This document shows positions 1 to 29,490 of a DNA stretch of 29,490 nt, piece after piece; the first letter of the stretch is position 1; every line of letters begins with the position of its first letter. Below the pieces are notes generated by a model. It worked only from the letters and a program-made list of their open reading frames with translations. It did no database searches and was not told the origin of the DNA. The translations under genes and the position numbers were made by a program. This DNA comes from a virus: positions 1-29,490 of IMG/VR virus record IMGVR_UViG_3300032213_002590; one strand, written 5' to 3'.

Positions 1-200
1 GAGCCTGGTAAGGGAGCCTGGAGCCTGGTAAGGGAGCCTGGAGCCTGGTAAGGGAGCCTGGAGCCTGGTAAGGGAGCCTGGAGCCTGGTAAGGGAGCCTG
101 GAGCCTGGTAAGGGAGCCTGGAGGCTAGTAAGGGAGCCTGGAGGCTAGTAAGGGAGCCTGGAGGCTAGTAAGGGAGCCTGGAGCCTGGTAAGGGAGCCAG
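1..200. repeat. 20-bp tandem repeat array, left end
   Basis: Ten head-to-tail 20-bp units. Units 1-6 (1-120) are identical, GAGCCTGGTAAGGGAGCCTG. Units 7-9 (121-180) carry two substitutions (GAGGCTAG...), and unit 10 (181-200) ends in CCAG before unique sequence begins. The array is richer in GC than the rest of the window and its top strand has regularly spaced GG/GGG tracts. No start codon, ribosome site or reading frame suggests coding. The same array closes the window, so this is probably one continuous array in a circular molecule, or a direct terminal repeat. The true copy number is uncertain because assemblers collapse such arrays. Confidence 0.97.
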
Positions 201-208
201 AAAACAGA

Positions 209-2927: not shown

Positions 2928-3591
2928 CGTATGGAGTCCGCAGTATCGCGGTTCTGCAAGCGTAGTGGGTGGACTGAGCGAGCCTTCAGGTCGTTTTGGC
3001 TGTTTGATTGTTGGTACACGTCCTGATCCTGGCACAAATGAAGAATCGTATTGTGCAGTTTATAGTGCAGCTAACAGGGCAGCAAACTATTTATTCCCGT
3101 ATGCTCCACTGAGTGAGAGCTATGAATACGGTGATATATCATCGTTGTTCAATTACTATGTATCAGGTGTTCGCGCTAACGCTATCCCTGAATACTATCC
3201 CTACAAGAATGAAAAGGGAGTAGTAGTTAATAAACACAACATGGCGGCTGTAATCAAATGGCTACAAGAGCGTATTCCTGCTCTTAAGAAGTACGCCAAG
3301 CCAGATGAGTTTATCAATTATATGTTCTACCACGCAGCGAACCTGTATAATCAGGATATGAAGAACTTTCGTCCTGATTTGTTGTGGCCTATTACGATTG
3401 ATAGTCGCAATCCCGGTCAGCCAGTGATGACTGAGTACTTCAAGAAAAAACAAGGTGAGATTCGAGAAGAATCTAATAAGGGAACAGGCATTGTTTCTGG
3501 TGTAAACGACTTGCTTTCTAATGTTTTGACGGTCATCGTTGTTGGTACAGCGATTTATTTCCTTGCACCAATAATTTTCTCACGTCGCTAA
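2881..3591 (+). CDS. tail-anchored putative virion protein, 236 aa
   Basis: A 236-aa protein with a soluble, Tyr-rich N-terminal region and one C-terminal membrane segment at about residues 213-230, ending in the basic tail FSRR. The start is GTG 2881; no in-frame ATG exists near the N-terminus. The stop overlaps the next ATG by one base (TAATG). The topology (bulk on one side of a membrane, anchor at the extreme C-terminus) is shared by at least six other proteins here and suggests an internal-membrane virion protein. No enzyme motif was recognised. Confidence 0.8.
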   Translation: MNQYEITKSNRYGYGNVWSPQYRGSASVVGGLSEPSGRFGCLIVGTRPDPGTNEESYCAVYSAANRAANYLFPYAPLSESYEYGDISSLFNYYVSGVRANAIPEYYPYKNEKGVVVNKHNMAAVIKWLQERIPALKKYAKPDEFINYMFYHAANLYNQDMKNFRPDLLWPITIDSRNPGQPVMTEYFKKKQGEIREESNKGTGIVSGVNDLLSNVLTVIVVGTAIYFLAPIIFSRR

Positions 3592-4145
3592 TGAAGACGT
3601 TAGTAAGAAATATCGGCAATGGCGATTCAGCGATCATGAAAACACTTGATCACATGATTCGCCTGGCTCGACGTGACGCTAGAACACCAGATGTGAAGAC
3701 TTTGGCAAAGCGATTGGCTTCCTCATGTACGTCTAGTGACATTAACTACCAAGAATACTGCAAAGTAAAGGCTGCATTCGACTGGGTAGTAGACAATATC
3801 ACGTATCGTTTTGATCATCAACACGTACAAGATTGGATCGAAGTCGATAACCCTAATACCACGGAGTTCCTCATCGCACCAAAACACCAACTTGGTGTGC
3901 TTGTAGGTGACTGCGATGATATGTCAATGATGCTCGCTGCTCTTTTAGGTGCGATGGGCTTTAGTGTCAAGTATAAGGTTATCGCATGGCGTGGTCAAGA
4001 ATACACTCATGTGTATGTCGAGGTTCTAATGCCAAACGCTGACGGTGAATACCGTTGGGTTCCTATGGATCCTGTTGCTGGCAAAAACGGTTTTGGCTGG
4101 GAAAAAGCCCCTGTAATTCGCAAACATCACGTAGACGTATTCTGA
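3591..4145 (+). CDS. transglutaminase-fold cysteine peptidase
   Basis: A 184-aa protein with the papain-like/transglutaminase-core pattern. A helix (KVKAAFDWVVDNITY, 58-72) precedes the catalytic Cys in GDCDDMSMMLAALL (C108), followed by His in YTHVYVEV (H140) and Asp in WVPMDPV (D160), in the order Cys-His-Asp and with usual spacing. Proteins of this family occur in many phage structural regions and may process virion proteins or cut peptidoglycan peptides. It lies between two tail-anchored proteins. It has no signal peptide or anchor of its own, so it may act inside the host or be packaged. The fold call is strong; the substrate is inference. Confidence 0.9.
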   Translation: MKTLVRNIGNGDSAIMKTLDHMIRLARRDARTPDVKTLAKRLASSCTSSDINYQEYCKVKAAFDWVVDNITYRFDHQHVQDWIEVDNPNTTEFLIAPKHQLGVLVGDCDDMSMMLAALLGAMGFSVKYKVIAWRGQEYTHVYVEVLMPNADGEYRWVPMDPVAGKNGFGWEKAPVIRKHHVDVF

Positions 4146-8642: not shown

Positions 8643-9257
8643 ATGTCGCAAATCGTTCCTGATGGTTTCGGACTACCACCAGCTGGTGCCACCGTCCAGA
8701 ATACATGGGCTATTGGTCATGACGCGGTTCTGATCAATCCAGCCACAGCTCTTGATTCGTCGTACACATTCTTTGATCAATCAGCATCGAAGAGTACGAC
8801 TTATCGCACGAGCGTTCTTTCAGTACTTGCACAACAACGTGCAGTGTACATCAAGGCTCTTCAGCTCAACCACAACCTTGCGTTCGCTGCAAACGAAAGC
8901 GAGCCAGCAGGTTCACAGACTGAAGGCTTTAACCGATTCTCTTTTGTCCAGATCACAATTCTTGGCAAGAGCGAAGACCGCTTCACACTTGAGGATCTCG
9001 TACCATTCTCCTTCATCAACGTGCAGGGAACGGTAACAGCTCAACTCAAGTACGCTCCGATTTTTGTTCTTCCAGAGCCAATCGAAGTTCCAAAGGGTGG
9101 TGACATTCAGATCACTCTTCTCCCGAACTCTGGCTACACGACAGCAGCATCGGCAGCAACAAATCCTCACCTTCCAAACGCTGGCTTCACGACATCAAAC
9201 CGTGGATTCAACGTTACGCTGAAGTACTGGGGTGCTCAGAGCCGTCCAACTGCCTAA
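8643..9257 (+). CDS. candidate major capsid protein (small all-beta protein)
   Basis: A 204-aa protein with no membrane segment and many alternating hydrophobic strands (FSFVQITILGK, VTAQLKYAPIFVL, GDIQITLLP, FNVTLKYWG). A Pro/Gly-rich turn (EPIEVPKGGDIQ) precedes a strand, as is common in jelly-roll capsid proteins. The context supports a capsid role: it is the first of three adjacent beta-rich proteins, it has its own leader, and a strong hairpin follows. No sequence-level family match is claimed. A spike, penton or cement protein is the main alternative. Confidence 0.55.
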   Translation: MSQIVPDGFGLPPAGATVQNTWAIGHDAVLINPATALDSSYTFFDQSASKSTTYRTSVLSVLAQQRAVYIKALQLNHNLAFAANESEPAGSQTEGFNRFSFVQITILGKSEDRFTLEDLVPFSFINVQGTVTAQLKYAPIFVLPEPIEVPKGGDIQITLLPNSGYTTAASAATNPHLPNAGFTTSNRGFNVTLKYWGAQSRPTA

Positions 9258-9319
9258 TGCAGTTTGGATTGTTGTGGGTATCAGCTCAATCGGCCTACAA
9301 CTCAACATCGCTATCAACA

Positions 9320-9351
9320 ACCGTGGCGGATCGGATAACATCCGCCACGGT
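9320..9351 (+). other. strong RNA hairpin between two structural genes
   Basis: A perfect 12-bp GC-rich stem, ACCGTGGCGGAT (9320-9331) with ATCCGCCACGGT (9340-9351), and an 8-nt loop. No T run follows, so a classical terminator is unlikely. It lies in the 128-bp gap after the candidate capsid gene. It may protect the 3' end of the capsid message, or reduce read-through so that the capsid protein is made in excess. Confidence 0.75.
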
Positions 9352-9385
9352 GATAGCGGTAAATTTCCTAACCAACTGAAGTATT

Positions 9386-9811
9386 ATGGAACCGATTACT
9401 CTAATCCCAGCGTCGAATCTTTACGTGTGGACGCTGAAGAACAACATCGTATCAGCGTCAACACCAGCAGATACGACTTTCAAGACACCAGGATTTGATA
9501 TTGATGTGGTATCGGTTCGAGGTGCGTTTTATAACACCACGGGTGCTATCCTTCCAACCAGCACAAACCGTGATAAAATCATGCTGCAAATCGTAGCTGG
9601 TGATACGTCAGCGCAACTTGCATCTACAGCAGCAGATGTATTTGGCTTCTTGTCTATGTGGTATGATTCTAACAACAACGTGCCACAATTCACACTTGCA
9701 AGCAATACAAACTACCAAGTTGTTTTCTCTGTTGATACGTCAACGGCAGTATTCGGCGCAACATATCCGATTCGCTGCGAATTGCAGTTCATTGGCAAGA
9801 AGAAGCAATAA
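9386..9811 (+). CDS. small all-beta structural protein, 141 aa
   Basis: A 141-aa protein dominated by predicted strands (NLYVWTLKNNIVSAS, DKIMLQIVAG, YQVVFSVD, YPIRCELQFIG) with a short basic tail (KKKQ). It starts with ATG 9386 after the hairpin gap and ends 11 bp before the next gene. Size and strand density suit a jelly-roll or immunoglobulin-like capsid or decoration protein. The longer frame starting at 9232 overlaps the capsid candidate and is rejected. Function inferred from context only. Confidence 0.7.
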   Translation: MEPITLIPASNLYVWTLKNNIVSASTPADTTFKTPGFDIDVVSVRGAFYNTTGAILPTSTNRDKIMLQIVAGDTSAQLASTAADVFGFLSMWYDSNNNVPQFTLASNTNYQVVFSVDTSTAVFGATYPIRCELQFIGKKKQ

Positions 9812-9822
9812 TAGAGGCAACA

Positions 9823-10578
9823 ATGCTCGACCACAATCGAATCGAGAAACTTCTCCAAACCCCGGTGTATGACATCCGCACGGCATACTGGTTTTCAACG
9901 ACGGATACAAATCCGACGTTTCAAGAAAACTGGGTTCCTGATGCCAATGCTGGATATTGGCAGACTAATGGGAGTGGAATTGTCGAGCATGACAACCTAT
10001 CTCAAATGCCGACGAGTCCAGGCTCAGACGCATTGGCAGCAAGTCCGTATAGTACACGGCTTAGACCAATGACTGATACGCGCTATCTGCAAACAGCGAG
10101 TAAGGTTGTAGTCACAAAGATTCACTTCCGCGCATACGACCATCGTCTGCCAGGCTCTGCGTATCAGGACGCTGCAACAAACACGGCGATTGATAACAGT
10201 CTTTGCACCTATAGCAGCTATGTAGTGTCACGCTTCCGTGATGGACTTATCAGCGACTGGTCAAACAACTGGTTTCGTCCAGCGTTTATCATCGGTGGTG
10301 TCAACATTCTACGTGACTTGGCTCTTCCAGCTATCGGTTCAACGGACGAGTTTGGCAATCTCTTGACATACAATCTTGGTGATATGTCTGTTGGTATTCC
10401 ATGCCCGTGGGAATTCAACGATATGTATGCTGTGATCAACAACTCAGACGGTCAACAAGTCGTTACAGCACCACAAGTCTATGCACAACTTGTTCAGTAT
10501 ATTCCAGATACAGGACGATATGTGCGCTATCCAGTAAAGTGTATCGCAGAATTTGCAGTAGCACAAGGTGATCGTTAA
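9823..10578 (+). CDS. beta-rich structural protein, 251 aa
   Basis: A 251-aa soluble protein, aromatic-rich and with many short strands. It ends in a strand-like RYPVKCIAEFAVAQ resembling the YPIRCELQFIG end of the preceding protein (pattern YPhrC.h.F), which hints at a shared fold. GAGG precedes the ATG. Together with the proteins at 8643 and 9386 it forms a trio in which one or two could be capsid subunits, as in phages with paired single-jelly-roll capsid proteins. This is inference from size, composition and order. Confidence 0.7.
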   Translation: MLDHNRIEKLLQTPVYDIRTAYWFSTTDTNPTFQENWVPDANAGYWQTNGSGIVEHDNLSQMPTSPGSDALAASPYSTRLRPMTDTRYLQTASKVVVTKIHFRAYDHRLPGSAYQDAATNTAIDNSLCTYSSYVVSRFRDGLISDWSNNWFRPAFIIGGVNILRDLALPAIGSTDEFGNLLTYNLGDMSVGIPCPWEFNDMYAVINNSDGQQVVTAPQVYAQLVQYIPDTGRYVRYPVKCIAEFAVAQGDR

Positions 10579-12778: not shown

Positions 12779-13404
12779 TGGACTTTCGTCGCCCACTGAA
12801 GCAAATACGCCTTGCAATGTACATCATTGCAGGGCTTTTAGTGCTTTTGTGGGGTACAGTCATGGCTATCGCATCTGTTCCTCGCTACTCGGCTCAAATG
12901 CCGCCTAAGTATGTTGAACAGGTCATAAAAAATGGATTATCCGACGTAGGGAAAATCGAATATACTGGACGCAACGACGGCAAGCATATTGACAGATATG
13001 CACGAACCGTTGGTATGCCTTTAGGTTCGGCTTACTGCTACGCTGCTATCTATACCTGGTCTAGCGATGCAGCTCATTGCCAGGCACTTGGCAACCCACT
13101 TCCTCGTACTGGCTCGACACAGACGGCATTCACTGTCGCTTCTAAAACATTTGCAGCCTCTAAGTACACGTCGGCTCGTCGTGGGGACATTCTGATATGG
13201 CGCATACCACGTAAGTGGCTTGGTCATGCAGCTCTTATCACTCGTGTACGTCCAGATGGTCTGCTAGAGACGATTGAGGCTAACACATCACGCGGTGGCA
13301 GTGGTGACCAGCGCGATGGTGGTGGCGTATGGACTAAACGTAGATTTATCAATCGAGGACTCGGACGTATGATCGTCCGTGGTCTTATCGGAATAGGCGC
13401 ATAA
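12778..13404 (+). CDS. membrane-anchored CHAP-like peptidoglycan amidase/peptidase
   Basis: A 208-aa protein. Residues about 13-33 form an N-terminal signal-anchor. The CHAP/NlpC-like domain follows, with catalytic Cys in GSAYCYAA (C87), the GDILIW strand (136-141), His in GHAAL (H150) and Glu in IEANTS (E167). It should cut peptide bonds or the amide bond in peptidoglycan from the periplasmic side. It follows the holin-like gene directly. Because the anchor is N-terminal it differs from the second CHAP protein at 17021. Either may be the endolysin; the other may serve entry. Confidence 0.88.
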   Translation: MDFRRPLKQIRLAMYIIAGLLVLLWGTVMAIASVPRYSAQMPPKYVEQVIKNGLSDVGKIEYTGRNDGKHIDRYARTVGMPLGSAYCYAAIYTWSSDAAHCQALGNPLPRTGSTQTAFTVASKTFAASKYTSARRGDILIWRIPRKWLGHAALITRVRPDGLLETIEANTSRGGSGDQRDGGGVWTKRRFINRGLGRMIVRGLIGIGA

Positions 13405-14666
13405 TGGAAAGAGGCATATTTGTCCCGATGATGATTCCTGCCTTCCCAGACAACCCTTGTGGTGGTGGTGGGACAGGTACGGTCACGTCGGTAGCACTTA
13501 CGGCTCCTGCGATTTTCGCAGTGGCAAATAGTCCAGTGACAACGGCTGGATCGCTGGATATTACGCTTGTTAATCAAAGCCCGAACCGTGTATTTGCATC
13601 TCCTACGACGGCTCCAGCAGCTCCACCGACGTTCAGGACGCTGGTAGCTGCTGATCTTGGCACTGGTACGGCTACAGTCAACACGGTTCTTCGTGGTGAC
13701 ATGACCTGGGGTGACGCAACTGCTATTGTAGGCTGGACACCAAGCCTCAATACAAGCTCGCCTAACAACACCGTAAACGCTTCGCGCTTGCTTGTCAATA
13801 GCACAAGCGTCAATGGCGATGCGGTGATCCAGCCTAAAGGCACTGGGGCATTGATTGGTGATCTGCCTGATGGCACGTCTGCTGGTGGCAATAAGCGAGG
13901 TACGTATGCAGTGGATTTACAGCTTGATCGTACCAATGCTAATCAAGTTGCTTTAGGTAATTATTCAGCTCTGATTGCTGGTTATCAAAATCGTGCAGAG
14001 GGTGTGTACTCAGCTGTTCTCGGTGGTGTGTCCAATTTTGTTAATGGATCATCGAGTATTATTCTTGGTGGATCTAGTAATACGATCGCATCAAACAGCG
14101 GAGCCATATTGTCTGGTTCTAGCCATAGCATAACAGCTGAATTTGCAACCATTGTCGGCGGAGGCGGAGGCGTTGCTAACGCATACAATCAAAAGGTATA
14201 TTCTGCCGCAGCTGGTCAGGCAAGTGGGACGAGACAGCAGGAGGAATACATTGTCACTCGCTCGACAACTTCTGGTATTGATGGTAATACCTTAGTAGAA
14301 TTGACCTGCAATGGTTCTGCTCCGTTATTTGCAAGCACTCCCAATCAAATAAGCGTTAGCAATAATGCCGTATATGCTTTTAGGGGTATAGTAGCTGCCT
14401 ATGGAGCAGACACAAATGCTGGTACAAGATACACTTACTGCGCTGAATTTAAGGGAGTTGTCCGTAGGTTGAACGCTGCGACTATCACCTTAGTCGGTTG
14501 TCCTACTGTAACTGTTTTAGCAGATGATAGTTCATCAAAACTTGTATTTGATATACAGGTTGATACAGTTAATAACGCGCTAAGGTTGCTAGGACAAAAT
14601 AATGTTGGCATTAATGCCTATGGCGTTTGGAACGCGCACGTTCAACTCACTAAAATTGGCTTCTAA
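13404..14666 (+). CDS. spike/fibre protein with YadA-head-like repeats (copy 1)
   Basis: A 420-aa protein. The N-terminus has GGGGTGTVTSVALTAP, typical of phage fibre proteins. A segment at about 119-188 (PNNTVNASRLLV, QPKGTGAL, GGNKRGTYAVDLQ) is nearly the same in the next gene. Residues about 185-255 are YadA/Hep_Hag-type repeats (GNYSALIAGYQN, GVYSAVLGGVSN, SSSIILGGSSN), which form trimeric left-handed beta-rolls. The C-terminal 140 residues are beta-rich and probably the receptor-binding or trimerisation domain. Likely host adsorption. The opposite strand is open over long stretches but codes for nothing recognisable. Confidence 0.88.
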   Translation: MERGIFVPMMIPAFPDNPCGGGGTGTVTSVALTAPAIFAVANSPVTTAGSLDITLVNQSPNRVFASPTTAPAAPPTFRTLVAADLGTGTATVNTVLRGDMTWGDATAIVGWTPSLNTSSPNNTVNASRLLVNSTSVNGDAVIQPKGTGALIGDLPDGTSAGGNKRGTYAVDLQLDRTNANQVALGNYSALIAGYQNRAEGVYSAVLGGVSNFVNGSSSIILGGSSNTIASNSGAILSGSSHSITAEFATIVGGGGGVANAYNQKVYSAAAGQASGTRQQEEYIVTRSTTSGIDGNTLVELTCNGSAPLFASTPNQISVSNNAVYAFRGIVAAYGADTNAGTRYTYCAEFKGVVRRLNAATITLVGCPTVTVLADDSSSKLVFDIQVDTVNNALRLLGQNNVGINAYGVWNAHVQLTKIGF

Positions 14667-14668
14667 TC

Positions 14669-15958
14669 ATGCCTAAAGTAAATTACGTTCAGCCGTGTGG
14701 CGGATCTGACATTACTATTACGTACCCTTCGACGAGCGGTACGCTTGCACTGAGCGGTGCTGGATTGACTGGTTTCATTCCTTCGCAGAACACTGCTGCT
14801 CCGAATAACACTGTAAACGCATCACGTTTGCTTGTCGATGCTACAACTGCAAATGCTGATATAGTCTTGCAGCCTAAAGGATCGGGTGCATTCTTAGCAC
14901 AGCTGCCTGATAACGCCACTACGGGTGGTAACAAGCGTGGTTCGTATGCAGTTGATTTGCAAACCCAACGTACAGCTGCTAACCAAGTCGCTGCTGGTAA
15001 TAATAGCGTTATTGGTGGTGGTTACGCTAATCGTATTGACGGTCTGGGTACGGCAAGCGTTATTGCTGGTGGTAACTCTAACTTGCTACAGAACGCTGGT
15101 TATTCATCAATTCTTGGTGGTAACGCTAATGCGGTTTATGCTCAAAATTCATCCGTTGTTGGTGGTTCAGGAAACTATTGCAATAATCAATACTCTTCGG
15201 TCTTGGGTGGTTTTACTAATGCCAACCAAGGATATGTCGCTACTCTTATTTCTGGTGGCAACAATACAATCAACTCAGGTGCAGATTACGGATTGATTGG
15301 CTCAGGTACTAATAATAACGTTAACGCAGCGTATTCAAGTATCATCAACGGATCATCAAATAACAACAGCGCATCATACGTAAGTATAGTCACAGGTCAA
15401 TTTAATACAGCATCCACGGGTTCTTCTACCTATGGTCTTATCGCTGGTGCTTCTTGTGGCGTTTATCACGAAGGTGGGATAGCATTTGGTGTTGCGGCGG
15501 GTACAACTACAAACCACCAAAAAGTTTGGAGTTCAGGACTAGCTACTGGCAATTCAGGGGACGTACAACAAGCCGAGCATCATTTGTACACAACGACCAC
15601 TAATGGATCTAATGTAAATCTGACCATTGGAGGAGCCACGTTATCAAATACAACGTCTGTAGCGGTTCCCCTGAATGGCACATTTTTATTCAAGGCTATT
15701 GTTTCTTGCAAGAGGTCTCCGACTTCTACAGCTGACTTTGGAGCGTGGGAGGTAACTGGTCTAGCAGTCAATCTTGCTGGTACAGTTACACTCTTTGGTA
15801 CAACCGTCACTATTATCCACAGAACAAACGGCGGATACACGGTGAATGCCGTCGCAGACAACACAAACAAAACTGTCAATATCGTAGTACAGGGTGTTGC
15901 TGGTCATACTATCATTTGGTCGGCCTACGTAAACACTATTCGTTCAGTAACTGCATAA
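14669..15958 (+). CDS. spike/fibre protein with YadA-head-like repeats (copy 2)
   Basis: A 429-aa paralogue of the preceding protein, starting 2 bp after it. It shares the PNNTVNASRLLV...QPKGSGAF...GGNKRGSYAVDLQ segment (about 45-110). It has a longer run of head repeats at about 108-265 (GYSSILGGNAN, QYSSVLGGFTN, AYSSIINGSSN) and a C-terminal beta domain that differs from copy 1 but keeps a common layout (QKVWSSGLATG versus QKVYSAAAGQA). It lacks the GTVTSVALTAP start. Two different receptor-binding ends on a shared stem would broaden host range or form a heteromeric spike. Confidence 0.88.
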   Translation: MPKVNYVQPCGGSDITITYPSTSGTLALSGAGLTGFIPSQNTAAPNNTVNASRLLVDATTANADIVLQPKGSGAFLAQLPDNATTGGNKRGSYAVDLQTQRTAANQVAAGNNSVIGGGYANRIDGLGTASVIAGGNSNLLQNAGYSSILGGNANAVYAQNSSVVGGSGNYCNNQYSSVLGGFTNANQGYVATLISGGNNTINSGADYGLIGSGTNNNVNAAYSSIINGSSNNNSASYVSIVTGQFNTASTGSSTYGLIAGASCGVYHEGGIAFGVAAGTTTNHQKVWSSGLATGNSGDVQQAEHHLYTTTTNGSNVNLTIGGATLSNTTSVAVPLNGTFLFKAIVSCKRSPTSTADFGAWEVTGLAVNLAGTVTLFGTTVTIIHRTNGGYTVNAVADNTNKTVNIVVQGVAGHTIIWSAYVNTIRSVTA

Positions 15959-18166: not shown

Positions 18167-18574
18167 ATGCGATATTCTAATACCTATGGCCTAAAAGGAC
18201 TTGGTTACACTACACTAAATGATTGTGGATGTTCTGATACTACACTAAGTGGAATCAATAAGAATATAGATGATGTAGTTGATGCTATCAATGATAAGTA
18301 TGACATTTGGGTCGTTGCAATCGAGCGCAAGGATCATATTATCATTGACAGCCTAGACTTAATGGATGAAAAGCGCAACGTAGGCCTCGAAGAGAAGGTT
18401 ATTAAAAAGGTAATGCGTTATGCTAAAAATCAAAACAAGCAAGTTTTTGTCAATCCTCGAACTCCATTTTTCTACGGCGGTAAGATAAACAGCAGTCGAT
18501 TTTGGAAATCTTTGGGCTTCGTAGATAACAAGTATCGCTTCAAGGATCGTTATACATTCGTGTATATCCCATAA
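18167..18574 (+). CDS. stand-alone GNAT-like protein, degenerate
   Basis: A 135-aa protein that aligns by eye with residues about 558-678 of the giant protein at 19378: LNDC..C..D..LS, then a GNAT-like core (DHIIIDSLDLM, KVIKKVMRYAKNQNKQVFV, FWKSLGFV). The acetyl-CoA-binding loop reads RNVGLE (70-75), whereas the giant protein has RNEGIG; loss of the second Gly suggests that it no longer binds acetyl-CoA in the usual way. The N-terminus carries RYSNTYGLKGLG, close to motifs in the structural proteins. It may be a structural reuse of the fold. Confidence 0.75.
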   Translation: MRYSNTYGLKGLGYTTLNDCGCSDTTLSGINKNIDDVVDAINDKYDIWVVAIERKDHIIIDSLDLMDEKRNVGLEEKVIKKVMRYAKNQNKQVFVNPRTPFFYGGKINSSRFWKSLGFVDNKYRFKDRYTFVYIP

Positions 18575-19377: not shown

Positions 19378-22300
19378 ATGAAAAAACAACATCGCAACAA
19401 CATCGACAGTATGCTCATGCGCCTTTGCAAGATCAAGGCTCGCAGTAAGGGGTACTATTCAGATGAGCCACAATACAAATCGTATTGCACCAAGCTATAC
19501 AACGCTACAAAAGAAGGCAAAGGTATAGCTGGTCTGGCTGGTGATGCTAACAATGAAGCCACTGCTGAACGTCTCACCAAGCTCTTCAAGGCCATAGGAT
19601 TCCCCTATCGCGTCGAAGCGTCTGGCAAGTTCCTAGACTTCTATGACCTGAATCCTGATGCAGAAGATCCTATTTTGTTTGACGATGATGCGGAAGACGT
19701 TTTCTACGATCAATTTGGCAAGGTTGTCAACTTTAAGGTATTGATTAGCCAGTTTTACGATCGTGATGAAAAGGTCAAGGCTTATGTAGAAAAGAACTTG
19801 TCTTCTAAGCGTCAAGCAAAAAAGACAGAGCCAAAGATCGAACGCGAAGAAGAAGCAGTTGAGGCTGAAGAAAAGGTCGAGATGCCAAAGCCTGTTCGTA
19901 AGACAGCAAAGGCTAAGGTCGAGAAGGTTGTAGAGCCTACGATCGACCCAAAAGAAACCGAAGATGAACAGGTAGTAGAGGCCAAGCAGATAAAGCCTAG
20001 TAAGAAGACAAAGAAGTTTGACGGTCAACTAGGTGGTCTCAACTACGAAGTTCTAACACGAGATGAGTGGTTGCAAGAATATGAACGTGCAACCGACGGC
20101 TATAAAATGGCAAAACGCGATCGTCAGGTGCTTATATCTCGTATTGAGCAAATGAGCGGTGCGGAGCTTCAGGAAAAATTTGGTGATTCGTTTATCAGTT
20201 CTACTGAAAATTCCTTTTACAGTGGCGATAGAGAATGGGTCGCTAAGTGGGCTTTGCGTATCGAGGAATTAGGTATCGTCACAATTACAAGTGCAAGGCG
20301 ATATTCAGACAATGACTCAACTAAGTTTCCTGAATCCTTCCTAAAAACTAATAGGTGGGAAATCAAATTGTTGCTTGAGCCAAAACAATCTTCTATAACA
20401 AAGTTGCAGTGCGATCACGCATCGCACTTTTTTGGTGATACATTCTTTGGTCAAAAGGTAGAACAACCCTTTTATGGTTGCCAAGAAACTAGTTCGTCAA
20501 CGAAGGAGACACCATCTAAACCAGCTAATCCATATAGCATCTTCGATGTAGCTGTAAATGCTGACGCTTGGAGTGATAAGACTGGTAAGTATGTATGGTA
20601 TTTGCTTACTGTCGAAGACTCTTACCGTATATGGAAGAACGCTGGTGGTGCTTTATATCCTCCTACCAAGGTCGCCGAATCTGATGACATTGGTCAATGG
20701 AATAAACTCAAGGATTTCTTTGGCAGTGAACCATTTGAGGCAACACAAAATAATCGAACATACTACCACTATCCTGTTGTTTTGGCGTTTCTAGGTTCTG
20801 GTACTCTTTATGAAGATACTCCACCTTGTCTATTCGGATTTTCATTTCATGAACTAGACAATGACAGAGTAACTTTCTACGTTCATTCTTATCCATTCGC
20901 CGATTCTTTTGGCGGTAAAAGATTCATTGATAGTGAAAAGCATATACTTAATGACTGCTTGAGTCTTCAATCATTTTTGAGTCACGTTGATATTGACATG
21001 AGTCTTGTGTCACCATGCAAAAAGCGTCGTAAAAGAATGAAAATTGAAGAAAAACTGAACGACTGTACCTCATGTGGTAATGATTCATCACTGAGCGATG
21101 ATCAATCATTTGATGGACTCATCGACCAACTCATTGAGGAGCATGACATTGATCTTGATGTATATGATTATGATGATTACATCATTATCAGTCGTATCGT
21201 TGTACCTAAAAACAAGCGTAATGAAGGTATTGGAACCGAAGTCATTGAGAAAATCCTGGAATACGCTGACGATAATGATAAAGACGTTTTTGTAACTCCT
21301 ACATCTGATTTTGGTGGGAGCATGACACGTCTTACTAAGTTCTACAAGTCTTTTGGCTTTGTACCTAACAAGGGCAAATACAGAGACTTCCGCACTCGTG
21401 AGACCATGATTCGCAAGAATAGTACGCTCGATGATCATACCGAGGATATGCCTACGCTTTTCTCCGGCAGCAATAATGTAGATCTTGGCAAACTTGAAAA
21501 CGATGATCGTCACAAGGCTCCTTATCGTGATGATGAAGGGTTTTTCAGCCCTGCCCACGATGTTTCCAAGGCATTTCCTGGTATCTACTCGATGTCGTTC
21601 TCGAAGGCACTCAGAGAGTATGGCACGGGCAACGATTCAGACCCTATGGCACTACAGATTATCCGTAACATACAGGACAATCCTGATGCTAAGGTGAAAA
21701 TCTATCGCGCAGTCGAGAAGGGTTTGCAGGATAACATCGCAGACTTAAAGCAAGATCGTAAGTACATAAAGCGTAATGGCTCTGTTCCACCTTGGGCAGA
21801 CGTACCTCCTCATTCAGCGGAGGAGTATTCAGCCTTTGTCGATTCACAGATTGACAATCTTGGTTCGGTGGAAGGTGCTACGATCCAGGCGAGTATCAAT
21901 CCAAATGAATGGGTAACGATTACTCGACAGTACGCTGTAGATCATGGCGAGTGTTGTGTTCCCGGTGGATATACGATTTTGACAAAGACAGTAAAGGCTA
22001 AAGACCTTTTTACTGAAGGTAACTCGATCCATGAATGGGGCTACGATCCAGGAAACGATACAGGCCTACGTGATCAATCATTTATGCCTCCGAAAGACGT
22101 ACAAGAGGAAGCAGAACGTGGTCTCGAATGGCGACGTGAGTACAACCGAGGTGGTACTTCTGTAGGTGTTGCGCGAGCAAGAGATTTGTCTAACGGCAAG
22201 TCTGTTAGCTATGATACGGTCAAGCGTATGAAGGCTTACTTTGACAGGCATTCGGTAGATAAGGACGCTCAAGGATTCCGTCAGGGTGAGCCTGGCTATC

Positions 22301-23097
22301 CTAGTGCTGGTCGTATTGCATGGTCTCTTTGGGGTGGTGATGCTGGCTATCGCTGGTCTAAGTCCATCGTAAGCAAGCAAGGTCTCGGAGAAATAGATTC
22401 CAACGATCAACTTTCAGGCAAGGTGCTGGACACCCAAGAAAAAGAGCAAAGCAAAGAGGTTGCACCATTGACGACTCAAGAAGTTATCAATATGGATCCA
22501 CCTCAAACGCTGCCACTGAAGGGTGAGATGCGAGATTTCCTGAGTAACCTATTGGCAAAGTTCAATATGCTGATTTGGGGTGGTGCTGGTAGTGGCAAAT
22601 CGTCATTTGTGCTGCGTTTGGCTAATGAACTTGCTGAAACAAATACAGGTCGCGTTCTTTACTACATGACCGAGGAAAAGGTTTCAAGCGGTCGTCTCAA
22701 GGCACGTATGGACTTGATGAAGGCTTACAGTGATAACGTCAACTTCGACGATCACGGTACTTTCGATCGACTGACTGCTCTGGTCAATACTGGTATGTAT
22801 CGTTATGTGATTGTTGACTCAATCAACATGATCAACGTCGAGCAACAACGTATCGTAGACTTAATGCAGACATTCCCAGAAGTGAGCTGGATTTTCATTG
22901 CACAAGCCACTAAGGGAAAGAATGCCTACGCTGGTATTCAGTCCTTGGCTCATGCTGTAGACACTGAAATTTCAACTGCGAACGATAAAGGTACAGCGGT
23001 AGCGGAATTGAAGAAGCACCGTGACGGTGCGCTTAAGACTCATACGATCTTTGGTAGTACTGGTATGCGCGATCCAGGGTGGCAAGCACAATGGTAA
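19378..23097 (+). CDS. giant polyvalent protein: GNAT + ART-like + phage domain + RadA-like ATPase
   Basis: A 1239-aa multidomain protein. Residues 1-140: unknown, acidic. 140-215: Lys/Glu-rich linker. 215-345 and 380-555: two domains not recognised. 558-680: GNAT acetyltransferase fold with acetyl-CoA loop RNEGIG (614-619) and FYKSFGFV. About 725-895: ADP-ribosyltransferase-like domain (KIYRAVEK, R777; WVTITRQYAVDHG, 846-858; AKDLF...IHEWGYDP, E886). About 926-995: phage domain ARARDLSNG...RHSVDKDAQGF...YPSAGRIAWSLWGGDAG. 1050-1239: RadA/RecA-type ATPase with Walker A GGAGSGKSS (1068-1076), YYMTEEK, Walker B YVIVDSIN (1143-1150) and KKHRDGAL. This is the 'polyvalent protein' plan, thought to be injected with phage DNA to counter host defences. 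The ATPase could alternatively help genome packaging. Confidence 0.88.
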   Translation: MKKQHRNNIDSMLMRLCKIKARSKGYYSDEPQYKSYCTKLYNATKEGKGIAGLAGDANNEATAERLTKLFKAIGFPYRVEASGKFLDFYDLNPDAEDPILFDDDAEDVFYDQFGKVVNFKVLISQFYDRDEKVKAYVEKNLSSKRQAKKTEPKIEREEEAVEAEEKVEMPKPVRKTAKAKVEKVVEPTIDPKETEDEQVVEAKQIKPSKKTKKFDGQLGGLNYEVLTRDEWLQEYERATDGYKMAKRDRQVLISRIEQMSGAELQEKFGDSFISSTENSFYSGDREWVAKWALRIEELGIVTITSARRYSDNDSTKFPESFLKTNRWEIKLLLEPKQSSITKLQCDHASHFFGDTFFGQKVEQPFYGCQETSSSTKETPSKPANPYSIFDVAVNADAWSDKTGKYVWYLLTVEDSYRIWKNAGGALYPPTKVAESDDIGQWNKLKDFFGSEPFEATQNNRTYYHYPVVLAFLGSGTLYEDTPPCLFGFSFHELDNDRVTFYVHSYPFADSFGGKRFIDSEKHILNDCLSLQSFLSHVDIDMSLVSPCKKRRKRMKIEEKLNDCTSCGNDSSLSDDQSFDGLIDQLIEEHDIDLDVYDYDDYIIISRIVVPKNKRNEGIGTEVIEKILEYADDNDKDVFVTPTSDFGGSMTRLTKFYKSFGFVPNKGKYRDFRTRETMIRKNSTLDDHTEDMPTLFSGSNNVDLGKLENDDRHKAPYRDDEGFFSPAHDVSKAFPGIYSMSFSKALREYGTGNDSDPMALQIIRNIQDNPDAKVKIYRAVEKGLQDNIADLKQDRKYIKRNGSVPPWADVPPHSAEEYSAFVDSQIDNLGSVEGATIQASINPNEWVTITRQYAVDHGECCVPGGYTILTKTVKAKDLFTEGNSIHEWGYDPGNDTGLRDQSFMPPKDVQEEAERGLEWRREYNRGGTSVGVARARDLSNGKSVSYDTVKRMKAYFDRHSVDKDAQGFRQGEPGYPSAGRIAWSLWGGDAGYRWSKSIVSKQGLGEIDSNDQLSGKVLDTQEKEQSKEVAPLTTQEVINMDPPQTLPLKGEMRDFLSNLLAKFNMLIWGGAGSGKSSFVLRLANELAETNTGRVLYYMTEEKVSSGRLKARMDLMKAYSDNVNFDDHGTFDRLTALVNTGMYRYVIVDSINMINVEQQRIVDLMQTFPEVSWIFIAQATKGKNAYAGIQSLAHAVDTEISTANDKGTAVAELKKHRDGALKTHTIFGSTGMRDPGWQAQW

Positions 23098-23417: not shown

Positions 23418-23822
23418 ATGTTTGATGATTGCCAAACGATAGAGCAGATTGAGCGTCGTAAGCGATCGCTCGTCACAGAGCTACATCCCGATGCTGGAGG
23501 CTCCAATGAGCGTTTCCTGGCAATGATGGAGGCGTATGACCGTGCCATAGAGCGCGTCAAGAACCCAGTCAAAAACGAGCCACAAGAGACTTTTCAGGCT
23601 CAACCTAACCCTATGCCCCAGTATGGGCATCAAATGCCACCGCAGGCGTTCTATCAGCCTAGCTTAGAGGATAAAATGAACAATCTCTTCACCTTCATTC
23701 AGCAAGGTGCAGAGATTGTTGCAAAGGCAGCCGTTGTCTACACGACTGTTATGGATCAGCTCGACGCTATCAAGGTTGAAAAGCGTAAGAAAGCGCGTAA
23801 GTCAAAGAAGCGGATTACTTAA
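23418..23822 (+). CDS. mini J-domain (DnaJ-like) protein
   Basis: A 134-aa protein. Residues about 7-46 resemble a short J-domain: helix II (EQIERRKRSLVTEL), the HPD tripeptide (23-25) in HPDAGGSNERF, then helix III (LAMMEAYDRAIER). A Pro/Gln-rich linker (55-80), an amphipathic helix and a Lys/Arg-rich tail (KRKKARKSKKR) follow. J-domains stimulate the ATPase of host DnaK through HPD, so the phage may recruit the chaperone for replication or assembly. Its 3' end overlaps the convergent gene by 8 bp. Confidence 0.85.
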   Translation: MFDDCQTIEQIERRKRSLVTELHPDAGGSNERFLAMMEAYDRAIERVKNPVKNEPQETFQAQPNPMPQYGHQMPPQAFYQPSLEDKMNNLFTFIQQGAEIVAKAAVVYTTVMDQLDAIKVEKRKKARKSKKRIT

Positions 23823-27480: not shown

Positions 27481-27718
27481 TGCGGAAACCCTATTTGACG
27501 GGGTTTCCAGGACATTGTGCGAGTGCGGAAAGAGTGCGGAAAAAAAAAGCGTTTCCGCAGCGACGTTGTAAGTCTATGGCCTGAATAGGTGTTTGTCTAT
27601 GGATTATTGCGGAAAACACGGGGGAGAATGCGGAAACCTGGCAGGCCTCGAATATCATTGTATGCTTGGTTTCCGCAGGTTTTCCGCAGGTTTTCCGCAG
27701 GTTTTCCGCAGGTTTTCC
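27481..27718. other. putative replication origin with ten iterons
   Basis: Within 230 bp there are ten copies of TGCGGAAA or its complement TTTCCGCA: five in forward orientation (27481, 27524, 27535, 27608, 27629) and five in reverse (27552, 27670, 27681, 27692, 27703). The last four are spaced exactly 11 bp, about one helical turn, as GGTTTTCCGCA repeats. It lies in the only long gene-free region, between the divergent helicase operon and the rightward early promoter, with AT-rich DNA just to the right (27731-27760). Iteron arrays of this kind bind an initiator. A transcriptional operator array is the alternative. Confidence 0.75.
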
Positions 27719-27776
27719 ATCAGTGCTAAGTCTTTATATTTCAACTACTTATCTTTTCACCAGTAGCTATGAAACA

Positions 27777-27808: not shown

Positions 27809-27837
27809 TTGACTATTGGGTTTTGTGGTGTTATATT
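27809..27837 (+). promoter_or_regulatory. strong sigma-70 type promoter for the rightward early operon
   Basis: TTGACT (27809-27814), a 17-bp spacer and TATATT (27832-27837): 5/6 matches to both boxes with ideal spacing, the best promoter in the window. Transcription would begin near 27844-27846, about 33 bp before the ATG at 27878. Confidence 0.8.
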
Positions 27838-27860
27838 GCATTTGTCAGTCATTCACAACA
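27831..27860 (+). repeat. 30-bp direct repeat, copy 1 (promoter/leader)
   Basis: A 30-bp sequence starting TTATATTGCATTTGTCAGTC covers the -10 box and the start of the leader. It is repeated without change at 28184-28213, each time just upstream of a gene start. Confidence 0.9.
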
Positions 27861-28168: not shown

Positions 28169-28190
28169 ATAGTCAATATTGGCTTATATT
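28162..28190 (+). promoter_or_regulatory. second copy of the early promoter (weaker -35)
   Basis: TATATT (28185-28190) with TTGGTA (28162-28167) 17 bp upstream. The -10 and downstream leader are in the exact 30-bp repeat; the -35 box is only a 4/6 match and lies over the stop of the preceding gene. Confidence 0.55.
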
Positions 28191-28213
28191 GCATTTGTCA
28201 GTCATTCACAACA
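28184..28213 (+). repeat. 30-bp direct repeat, copy 2 (promoter/leader)
   Basis: Identical to 27831-27860. It precedes the ATG at 28230 as copy 1 precedes the ATG at 27878, so both transcripts would share the same 5' end. Confidence 0.9.
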
Positions 28214-29357: not shown

Positions 29358-29490
29358 AAGGGAGCCAGGAGCCTGGTAAGGGAGCCTGGAGCCTGGTAAG
29401 GGAGCCTGGAGCCTGGTAAGGGAGCCTGGAGCCTGGTAAGGGAGCCTGGAGCCTGGTAAGGGAGCCTGGAGCCTGGTAAGGGAGCCTGGA
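29358..29490. repeat. 20-bp tandem repeat array, right end
   Basis: A partial unit AAGGGAGCCAG followed from 29369 by six perfect units of the left-end repeat and the two bases GA. The last 122 bases (29369-29490) equal the first 122 bases of the window. Joining the ends by this overlap gives one in-phase array, as expected for a circular genome. Confidence 0.97.

What the first reader, a model, noticed from the sequence alone, without database searches (positions are those of the whole stretch)
19378..23097. 1239-aa polyvalent protein combining GNAT, ART-like and RadA-like domains
One gene joins an acetyltransferase fold with an intact RNEGIG loop, an ADP-ribosyltransferase-like domain, the ARARD...WGGDAG phage domain and a C-terminal RecA/RadA-type ATPase with good Walker A and B, plus two large unrecognised domains (215-345, 380-555). 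Such polyvalent proteins are thought to enter the cell with the DNA and modify host proteins. Fusion to a RadA-like ATPase at the C-terminus is notable, and it is the only ATPase besides the helicase, so it may have been recruited to packaging.
Basis: partly seen in the sequence, partly recalled or inferred. Interest (0 to 1): 0.8.

Follow-up and report, generated by a model that had tools for sequence, protein, structure and literature searches.

The report
Packaging-type ATPase fused to virion effectors
A 1239-residue phage protein joins enzyme-like domains that probably alter the host cell to a RadA-like ATPase that recurs throughout a group of tailless viruses of Bacteroidota and is probably their DNA-packaging motor, so the effectors and the motor may travel in the virus particle together.

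Summary
The ORF is real: 19378-23097, 1239 aa, one uninterrupted frame. The C-terminal ATPase is RadA-like (profile against PDB RadA 3.5e-12). [quoted passage not shown] It is one of only two Walker-A proteins in the window; the other is the SF3 helicase.

Two close relatives show that the gene is a fusion. In them the N-terminal part is a separate protein, and ART-like, WGGDAG and ATPase domains follow a JAB-like domain in another gene. The window alone lost a MoxR gene, a VWA-like gene and the JAB domain, and gained GNAT.

In Bacteroidota genomes the ATPase is either free, beside a giant polyvalent protein and SSIP-1-type capsid genes, or fused to varied effectors (RadC+LPD1, a DdrB-ParB-like domain, others). 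Eight of nine such C-terminal fusions carry an xGL[GSE] motif in the linker before the ATPase, a candidate processing site.

GNAT is supported. ART is only weakly supported. WGGDAG is a head-protein domain, usually fused to prohead protease, capsid, portal or MuF. RadA domains in polyvalent proteins were already known (Iyer 2017). New here are the tailless-virus context, the packaging reading, and the linker motif. Function is inferred throughout.

The parts
19378..23097 (+). Fused gene, 1239 aa
   Evidence: Single open frame
19378..19797 (+). Residues 1-140: N-terminal domain of the 'N-protein' that is a separate gene in relatives; GLA motif at residues 52-54
   Evidence: 32% to L003 over residues 4-384; 47% to G001 over residues 3-153
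19798..20019 (+). Residues 141-214: charged K/E-rich linker
   Evidence: Composition; poorly conserved in alignment
20020..20487 (+). Residues 215-370: conserved domain of unknown function (LGGL...CDHASHFF...PF.GC)
   Evidence: Invariant columns in three viruses; no Pfam match in relatives
20515..21042 (+). Residues 380-555: region without a recognisable relative
   Evidence: No clear homology in the alignment with relatives
21136..21429 (+). Residues 587-684: GNAT-type acetyltransferase domain
   Evidence: phrog_10691 2.7e-20 and phrog_11975 4.9e-9; PF13508 1.5e-4; aligns with the GNAT of a 1855-aa phage protein in L014
21496..22053 (+). Residues 707-892: putative ART-like domain (H712, IYRAV, EWVT..YA..HG, SIHEWGYDP)
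   Evidence: Conserved in 19 homologues; AF2 pLDDT 88; fold assignment weak; BFVD matches include a large polyvalent protein
22087..22380 (+). Residues 904-1001: WGGDAG head-associated domain, all-helical in the model
   Evidence: phrog_2859 1.2e-32; fused to prohead protease, capsid, portal or MuF in tailed phages; model
22378..22392 (+). Residues 1001-1005 QGLGE in the WGGDAG-ATPase linker: candidate processing site
   Evidence: Equivalent motif in 8 of 9 C-terminal ATPase fusions
22465..23094 (+). Residues 1030-1239: RadA-like RecA-superfamily ATPase of the SSIP-1 gp40 family
   Evidence: phrog_6891 1.7e-23; PDB RadA 3.5e-12 by profile; fold
22579..22602 (+). Walker A GGAGSGKS
22807..22821 (+). 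Walker B (VIVDS, D1147)
23418..23822 (+). Downstream gene with a J-domain-like HPD motif, conserved after the ATPase gene
   Evidence: Present downstream in L037, L003 and provirus L164
18996..19298 (+). Upstream Lys/Arg/Ala-rich, histone H1-like basic protein
   Evidence: Sequence; similar genes in L003 and G001
18167..18574 (+). Separate GNAT-related gene (paralogue of residues 559-673) with a short GLG leader
   Evidence: 37%, 1.1e-17; only its leader is shared with the gene at this place in G001
3591..4145 (+). Transglutaminase-like fold protein with C-H-D residues, homologue of SSIP-1 structural protein gp34; candidate maturation protease
   Evidence: PF01841 1.4e-10; 9e-14 to gp34; alignment
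8643..10578 (+). Candidate capsid genes 8643-9257, 9386-9811, 9823-10578, collinear with a Bacteroidota provirus
   Evidence: 96-98% in G001; collinear in L164, third gene 5e-6 by BLASTP

Best explanation
The gene encodes a virion-associated fusion protein of a tailless virus of Bacteroidota. Its C-terminal 210 residues are a RadA-like ATPase that most likely drives genome packaging, taking the place that FtsK/HerA-type ATPases hold in other tailless membrane-containing viruses. The upstream domains (GNAT, ART-like, WGGDAG and an N-terminal protein) are cargo that would be brought to the particle by the motor, enclosed, and delivered with the DNA to modify host proteins. Shown here: the fusion, the ATPase family, its recurrence with SSIP-1-type capsid genes, and the head-protein context of the WGGDAG domain. 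Inferred: packaging, encapsidation, delivery, and all enzymatic activities.
For: The ATPase is in the family of SSIP-1 gp40 (phrog_6891), which the record lists as a structural protein and which was predicted to be the packaging ATPase (PMC4124505). A profile of these ATPases matches RadA over about 200 residues (3.5e-12). Only two Walker A motifs occur in the window, this one and the SF3 helicase. In 296 Bacteroidota genomes the family is separable from cellular RadA. Five of its loci lie with SSIP-1 capsid and gp34-type genes (L166-L169, L173) and one with a gene order matching the window (L164). The ATPase sits next to giant polyvalent proteins (SSIP-1 gp43 2319 aa; 1872-2416 aa in L166, L167, L168, L173) and is fused at its C-terminal side to a gp43-like tail in L169. 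WGGDAG is fused to prohead protease in 24, HK97 capsid in 17, portal in up to 10 and MuF in 4 of 41 proteins scanned.
Against: No experiment shows packaging by any member. The window's capsid proteins show no sequence relation to those of SSIP-1, so the shared virion type is inferred from synteny, the ATPase and the gp34-type protein. RadA-like domains also occur in Bacteroidota elements where no gp34-type homologue was found (L165, L170-L172). The ART assignment is weak. No virion proteomics exist for this virus.
Confidence: 0.6

Rival explanations
1. The RadA-like domain is not a packaging motor but an injected DNA-processing factor that acts on the incoming genome (branch migration, circularisation, protection), as proposed for SMS/RadA domains of polyvalent proteins.
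For: Iyer 2017 suggests this role for the same domain class (PMC5512222). Sequence kinship is to RadA, a branch-migration ATPase. Some carriers lack a detectable gp34-type gene nearby.
Against: The free form is conserved beside capsid genes in SSIP-1-like viruses and no other packaging-type ATPase was seen: in the five SSIP-1-like regions the ATPase gene carries the only Walker A motif apart from one other gene in L168.
Confidence: 0.25
2. The protein is not in the virion: it is a late or accessory intracellular protein, and the fusion only coordinates expression.
For: No direct proteomic evidence in this virus; GNAT and ART-like domains also occur in many phage proteins of unknown location.
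Against: Homologues gp40 and gp43 are annotated as structural in SSIP-1; the WGGDAG domain is typical of head proteins.
Confidence: 0.12
3. The single 1239-aa frame is an assembly or sequencing artefact that joins two genes.
For: Both close relatives have the N-terminal and C-terminal parts in separate genes, and only this genome has the fusion.
Against: The junction is in frame through an extra GNAT domain, with uninterrupted coding and collinear flanks. Other lineages carry independent ATPase fusions.
Confidence: 0.03

Closest known systems
Salisaeta icosahedral phage 1 gp40 (phrog_6891)
   Same: RadA-like ATPase core, 31% identity over 166 residues; a gp34-type transglutaminase-like protein in the same genome; a giant polyvalent protein nearby
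   Different: gp40 is a free 320-aa protein; gp43 is separate; capsid proteins of the two viruses show no sequence similarity
Polyvalent proteins with SMS/RadA, GNAT and ART domains (Iyer et al. 2017, PMC5512222)
   Same: Mix of protein-modifying and DNA-related domains in one chain; SMS/RadA reported in Bacteroidetes; GNAT next to ART reported
   Different: There SMS/RadA was assigned mainly to conjugative elements or plasmids and to processing of incoming DNA; here it belongs to a tailless-virus ATPase family
Bacterial RadA/Sms
   Same: RecA core and motif order; the KNRFG-like motif is KHRDG at 1213-1217 here and KNRWG in L129
   Different: No zinc-finger cysteines and no C-terminal Lon-like domain
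Relatives L037/G001 and L003/G002
   Same: ART-like, WGGDAG and ATPase domains in one gene; collinear genomes
   Different: N-protein, MoxR, VWA-like and 100-aa genes are separate; a JAB-like domain stands in place of GNAT and the N-protein

Membership tests
SSIP-1 gp40-type ATPase (phrog_6891) | Significant profile match over the ATPase core | tested here: met
   1.7e-23 for the window, 2.6e-79 for gp40
SSIP-1 gp40-type ATPase (phrog_6891) | Located in the virion | not testable with these tools
   gp40 is annotated as structural; there are no virion data for this virus
RadA/Sms | RecA-type ATPase core related to RadA | tested here: met
   PDB RadA 3.5e-12 by profile; TIGR00416 4.7e-7
RadA/Sms | N-terminal C4 zinc finger | tested here: not met
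   No cysteine in residues 901-1239
RadA/Sms | C-terminal Lon-protease-like domain | tested here: not met
   The protein ends 22 residues after the KHRDG motif
FtsK/HerA-type packaging ATPase | Closest kinship to FtsK/HerA rather than RadA | tested here: inconclusive
   Pfam FtsK_SpoIIIE 0.14, below cut-off; PDB profile search gives RadA and no FtsK/HerA; fold rows are RadA, RecA, KaiC, Rho and others
Polyvalent proteins | Several unrelated effector-type domains in one polypeptide | tested here: met
   GNAT and RadA-like ATPase assigned, WGGDAG and a putative ART-like domain conserved
Polyvalent proteins | Recognised large polyvalent domain (LPD, MPTase, ParB and others) | tested here: not met
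   No Pfam LPD in the window protein; relative L129 has RadC and LPD1
Polyvalent proteins | Transferred into the host with the DNA | not testable with these tools
   Inference only
ADP-ribosyltransferase | ART fold | tested here: inconclusive
   Only KptA/Tpt1 rows span the domain, Z 4.5-5.0; no Foldseek match
ADP-ribosyltransferase | Known ART profile match | tested here: not met
   No ART-family match among 19 members at E up to 10
GNAT | Acetyl-CoA loop R/QxxGxG/A | tested here: met
   R614-N-E-G617-I-G619; PHROG 2.7e-20

The most novel reading that the evidence does not exclude
The fusion is a maturation polyprotein. A virion protease, perhaps the transglutaminase-like protein at 3591-4145, cuts at [NKQ]GL[GSE] in the linker and frees a gp40-like packaging ATPase while the effector part stays in the particle. 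The same short motif marks leaders and linkers of other late proteins of these viruses.
Probability: 0.35. Interest if true: 0.78.

Novelty: new variant of a known kind. Interest (0 to 1): 0.62.

Why it matters
It links RadA-type polyvalent proteins to a lineage of tailless viruses and gives their ATPase a testable job. If the motor is RadA-like, packaging in this group does not use the FtsK/HerA-type ATPase usually assumed for tailless membrane-containing viruses. The recurrent coupling of motor and effectors, adjacent or fused, suggests how host-directed enzymes could be loaded into a particle without a tail. The linker motif offers a simple prediction for mass spectrometry. The WGGDAG domain, found in hundreds of viral loci and in head proteins, also gains a use beyond HK97-type capsids.

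Tried and rejected
Sequence search for the window's capsid proteins in annotated phages: no match. Profile comparison of window and SSIP-1 capsid proteins: no relation detected. Genome scan with the three-sequence ATPase alignment: nothing; the four-sequence alignment gave L129. Structure prediction of residues 1-555 was not attempted: three or four thin homologues and no alignment for 380-555. PDB sequence search with the WGGDAG profile: no match, so its fold and function stay open. PADLOC: only weak ATPase matches. Rfam: none. Reading the ART-like domain as 'ParB C-terminal' from the PHROG name (phrog_2579) was rejected: the match is to 58 residues at the end of that profile and the name probably refers to another domain. 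Assembly error was considered and judged unlikely. No FtsK, HerA or terminase row appeared among the fold matches, which does not exclude a relation.

Full report
The observation. The ORF at 19378-23097 encodes 1239 residues in one frame. The window is a 29,490-base IMG/VR virus record with 20-base tandem repeats at both ends. One close relative has identical 127-base ends, as expected of a circular genome.

Domains. GNAT: residues 587-684, with the acetyl-CoA loop RNEGIG. Pfam matches are below cut-off but PHROG matches are strong, and it aligns with the GNAT of a 1855-aa phage protein that also carries the ART-like domain (L014). ART-like: residues 707-892. The family is conserved in many phages and models well (pLDDT 88), but no ART profile matches, and only KptA/Tpt1 structures span it, weakly. 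I therefore call it ART-like with reserve. WGGDAG: residues 904-1001. Of 41 proteins with this domain, 24 carry a prohead protease, 17 an HK97 capsid, up to 10 a portal and 4 a MuF domain, so it is a head-associated domain. Residues 215-370 are conserved in relatives; 380-555 are not.

The ATPase. A profile from the window, two relatives and SSIP-1 gp40 matches RadA structures at 3.5e-12 over about 200 residues. Fold comparison places it among RadA, RecA, KaiC and Rho with tied scores. The RadA zinc finger and Lon-like domain are missing. It is in phrog_6891 with SSIP-1 gp40. The SSIP-1 record marks gp40 as structural, and a review lists it as the predicted packaging ATPase (PMC4124505). The window has only two Walker A motifs, this one and the SF3 helicase.

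The fusion. In relatives L003 and L037 the N-terminal part is a separate protein of 747 or 714 aa, followed by a MoxR-type AAA gene, a VWA-like gene, a 100-aa gene, and a gene for JAB-like, ART-like, WGGDAG and ATPase domains of 916 or 866 aa. The flanks are collinear, with candidate capsid genes 96-98% identical in G001. In the window the intervening genes and the JAB-like domain are gone and a GNAT is present. A GNAT paralogue lies just upstream at 18167-18574.

The wider family. In 296 Bacteroidota genomes the profile separates about 20 loci from cellular RadA. Many are free ATPases. Five regions examined contain SSIP-1 gp34- and capsid-type genes (L166-L169, L173). Four have a 1872-2416-aa protein directly downstream whose C-terminus resembles SSIP-1 gp43, and in L169 the ATPase and a gp43-like tail are one protein. 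Other loci have C-terminal fusions: RadC plus LPD1 in L129, a GNGR-motif domain that I read as DdrB-ParB-like in L164, others in L165 and L170-L172. L164 also matches the window's gene order, including a capsid-candidate match at 5e-6 and the J-domain-like gene.

Linker motif. Eight of nine C-terminal ATPase fusions (all but L135) have [NKQ]GL[GSE] 41-88 residues before the P-loop, while free ATPases begin about 37-47 residues before it. The motif was chosen after inspection. G[LM][GSA][DE] occurs 6 times against 1.15 expected in the window's late proteins (0 of 1000 shuffles) and not in the remaining genes. GLG occurs 11 times against 1.8 expected in the L129 viral genes and not in its flanking genes. 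It is not significantly enriched in SSIP-1 or in several other proviruses, where other leaders such as SGFLxD appear. Processing is a hypothesis.

Mechanism. I think it most likely (0.6) that the ATPase packages the genome and that the fused domains are virion cargo acting on the host after entry. The main rival is an injected RadA-like DNA-processing factor (0.25), as proposed by Iyer et al. (PMC5512222). All functional steps are inference.

Novelty. Polyvalent proteins with SMS/RadA, and GNAT next to ART, are published. The placement in a tailless-virus lineage, the repeated coupling of motor and effectors, and the linker motif are, as far as I could check here, new. Interest 0.62.

Noticed in passing
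L166:3805-19049: Late proteins of this SSIP-1-like provirus carry short leaders SGFLxD: 6 occurrences against 0.01 expected. Different viruses of the group may use different leader motifs.
   Followed up: partly
L003:5804-8691 and L037:1623-4480: A MoxR-type AAA ATPase gene followed by a VWA-like gene inserted between the N-protein and the JAB-ART-WGGDAG-ATPase gene; absent from the window.
   Followed up: partly
L003:3559-5802, L037:14-1621: The N-protein of relatives has two RGRGRPPGSKNKPK repeats that look like AT-hooks; the window version lacks them.
   Followed up: no
window 1-202 and 29358-29490: 20-base tandem repeats (GAGCCTGGTAAGGGAGCCTG) at both ends of the record, probably one array of a circular genome.
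   Followed up: no
window 27670-27724: Head-to-tail 11-base units TTTCCGCAGGT in a non-coding stretch between divergent genes; iteron-like, possible replication origin.
   Followed up: no
window 27831-27860 and 28184-28213: Identical 30-base repeat, 353 bases apart.
   Followed up: no
window 13404-15958: Two adjacent paralogous repeat-rich genes (YadA-head-like GGxxN repeats), possible receptor-binding proteins; they cross-match in G001 at about 46-50%.
   Followed up: no
L008:11142-14015: In a tailed phage one 957-aa gene joins WGGDAG, a P-loop motif and an HK97 prohead protease, next to a 1777-aa gene with the ART-like domain.
   Followed up: partly
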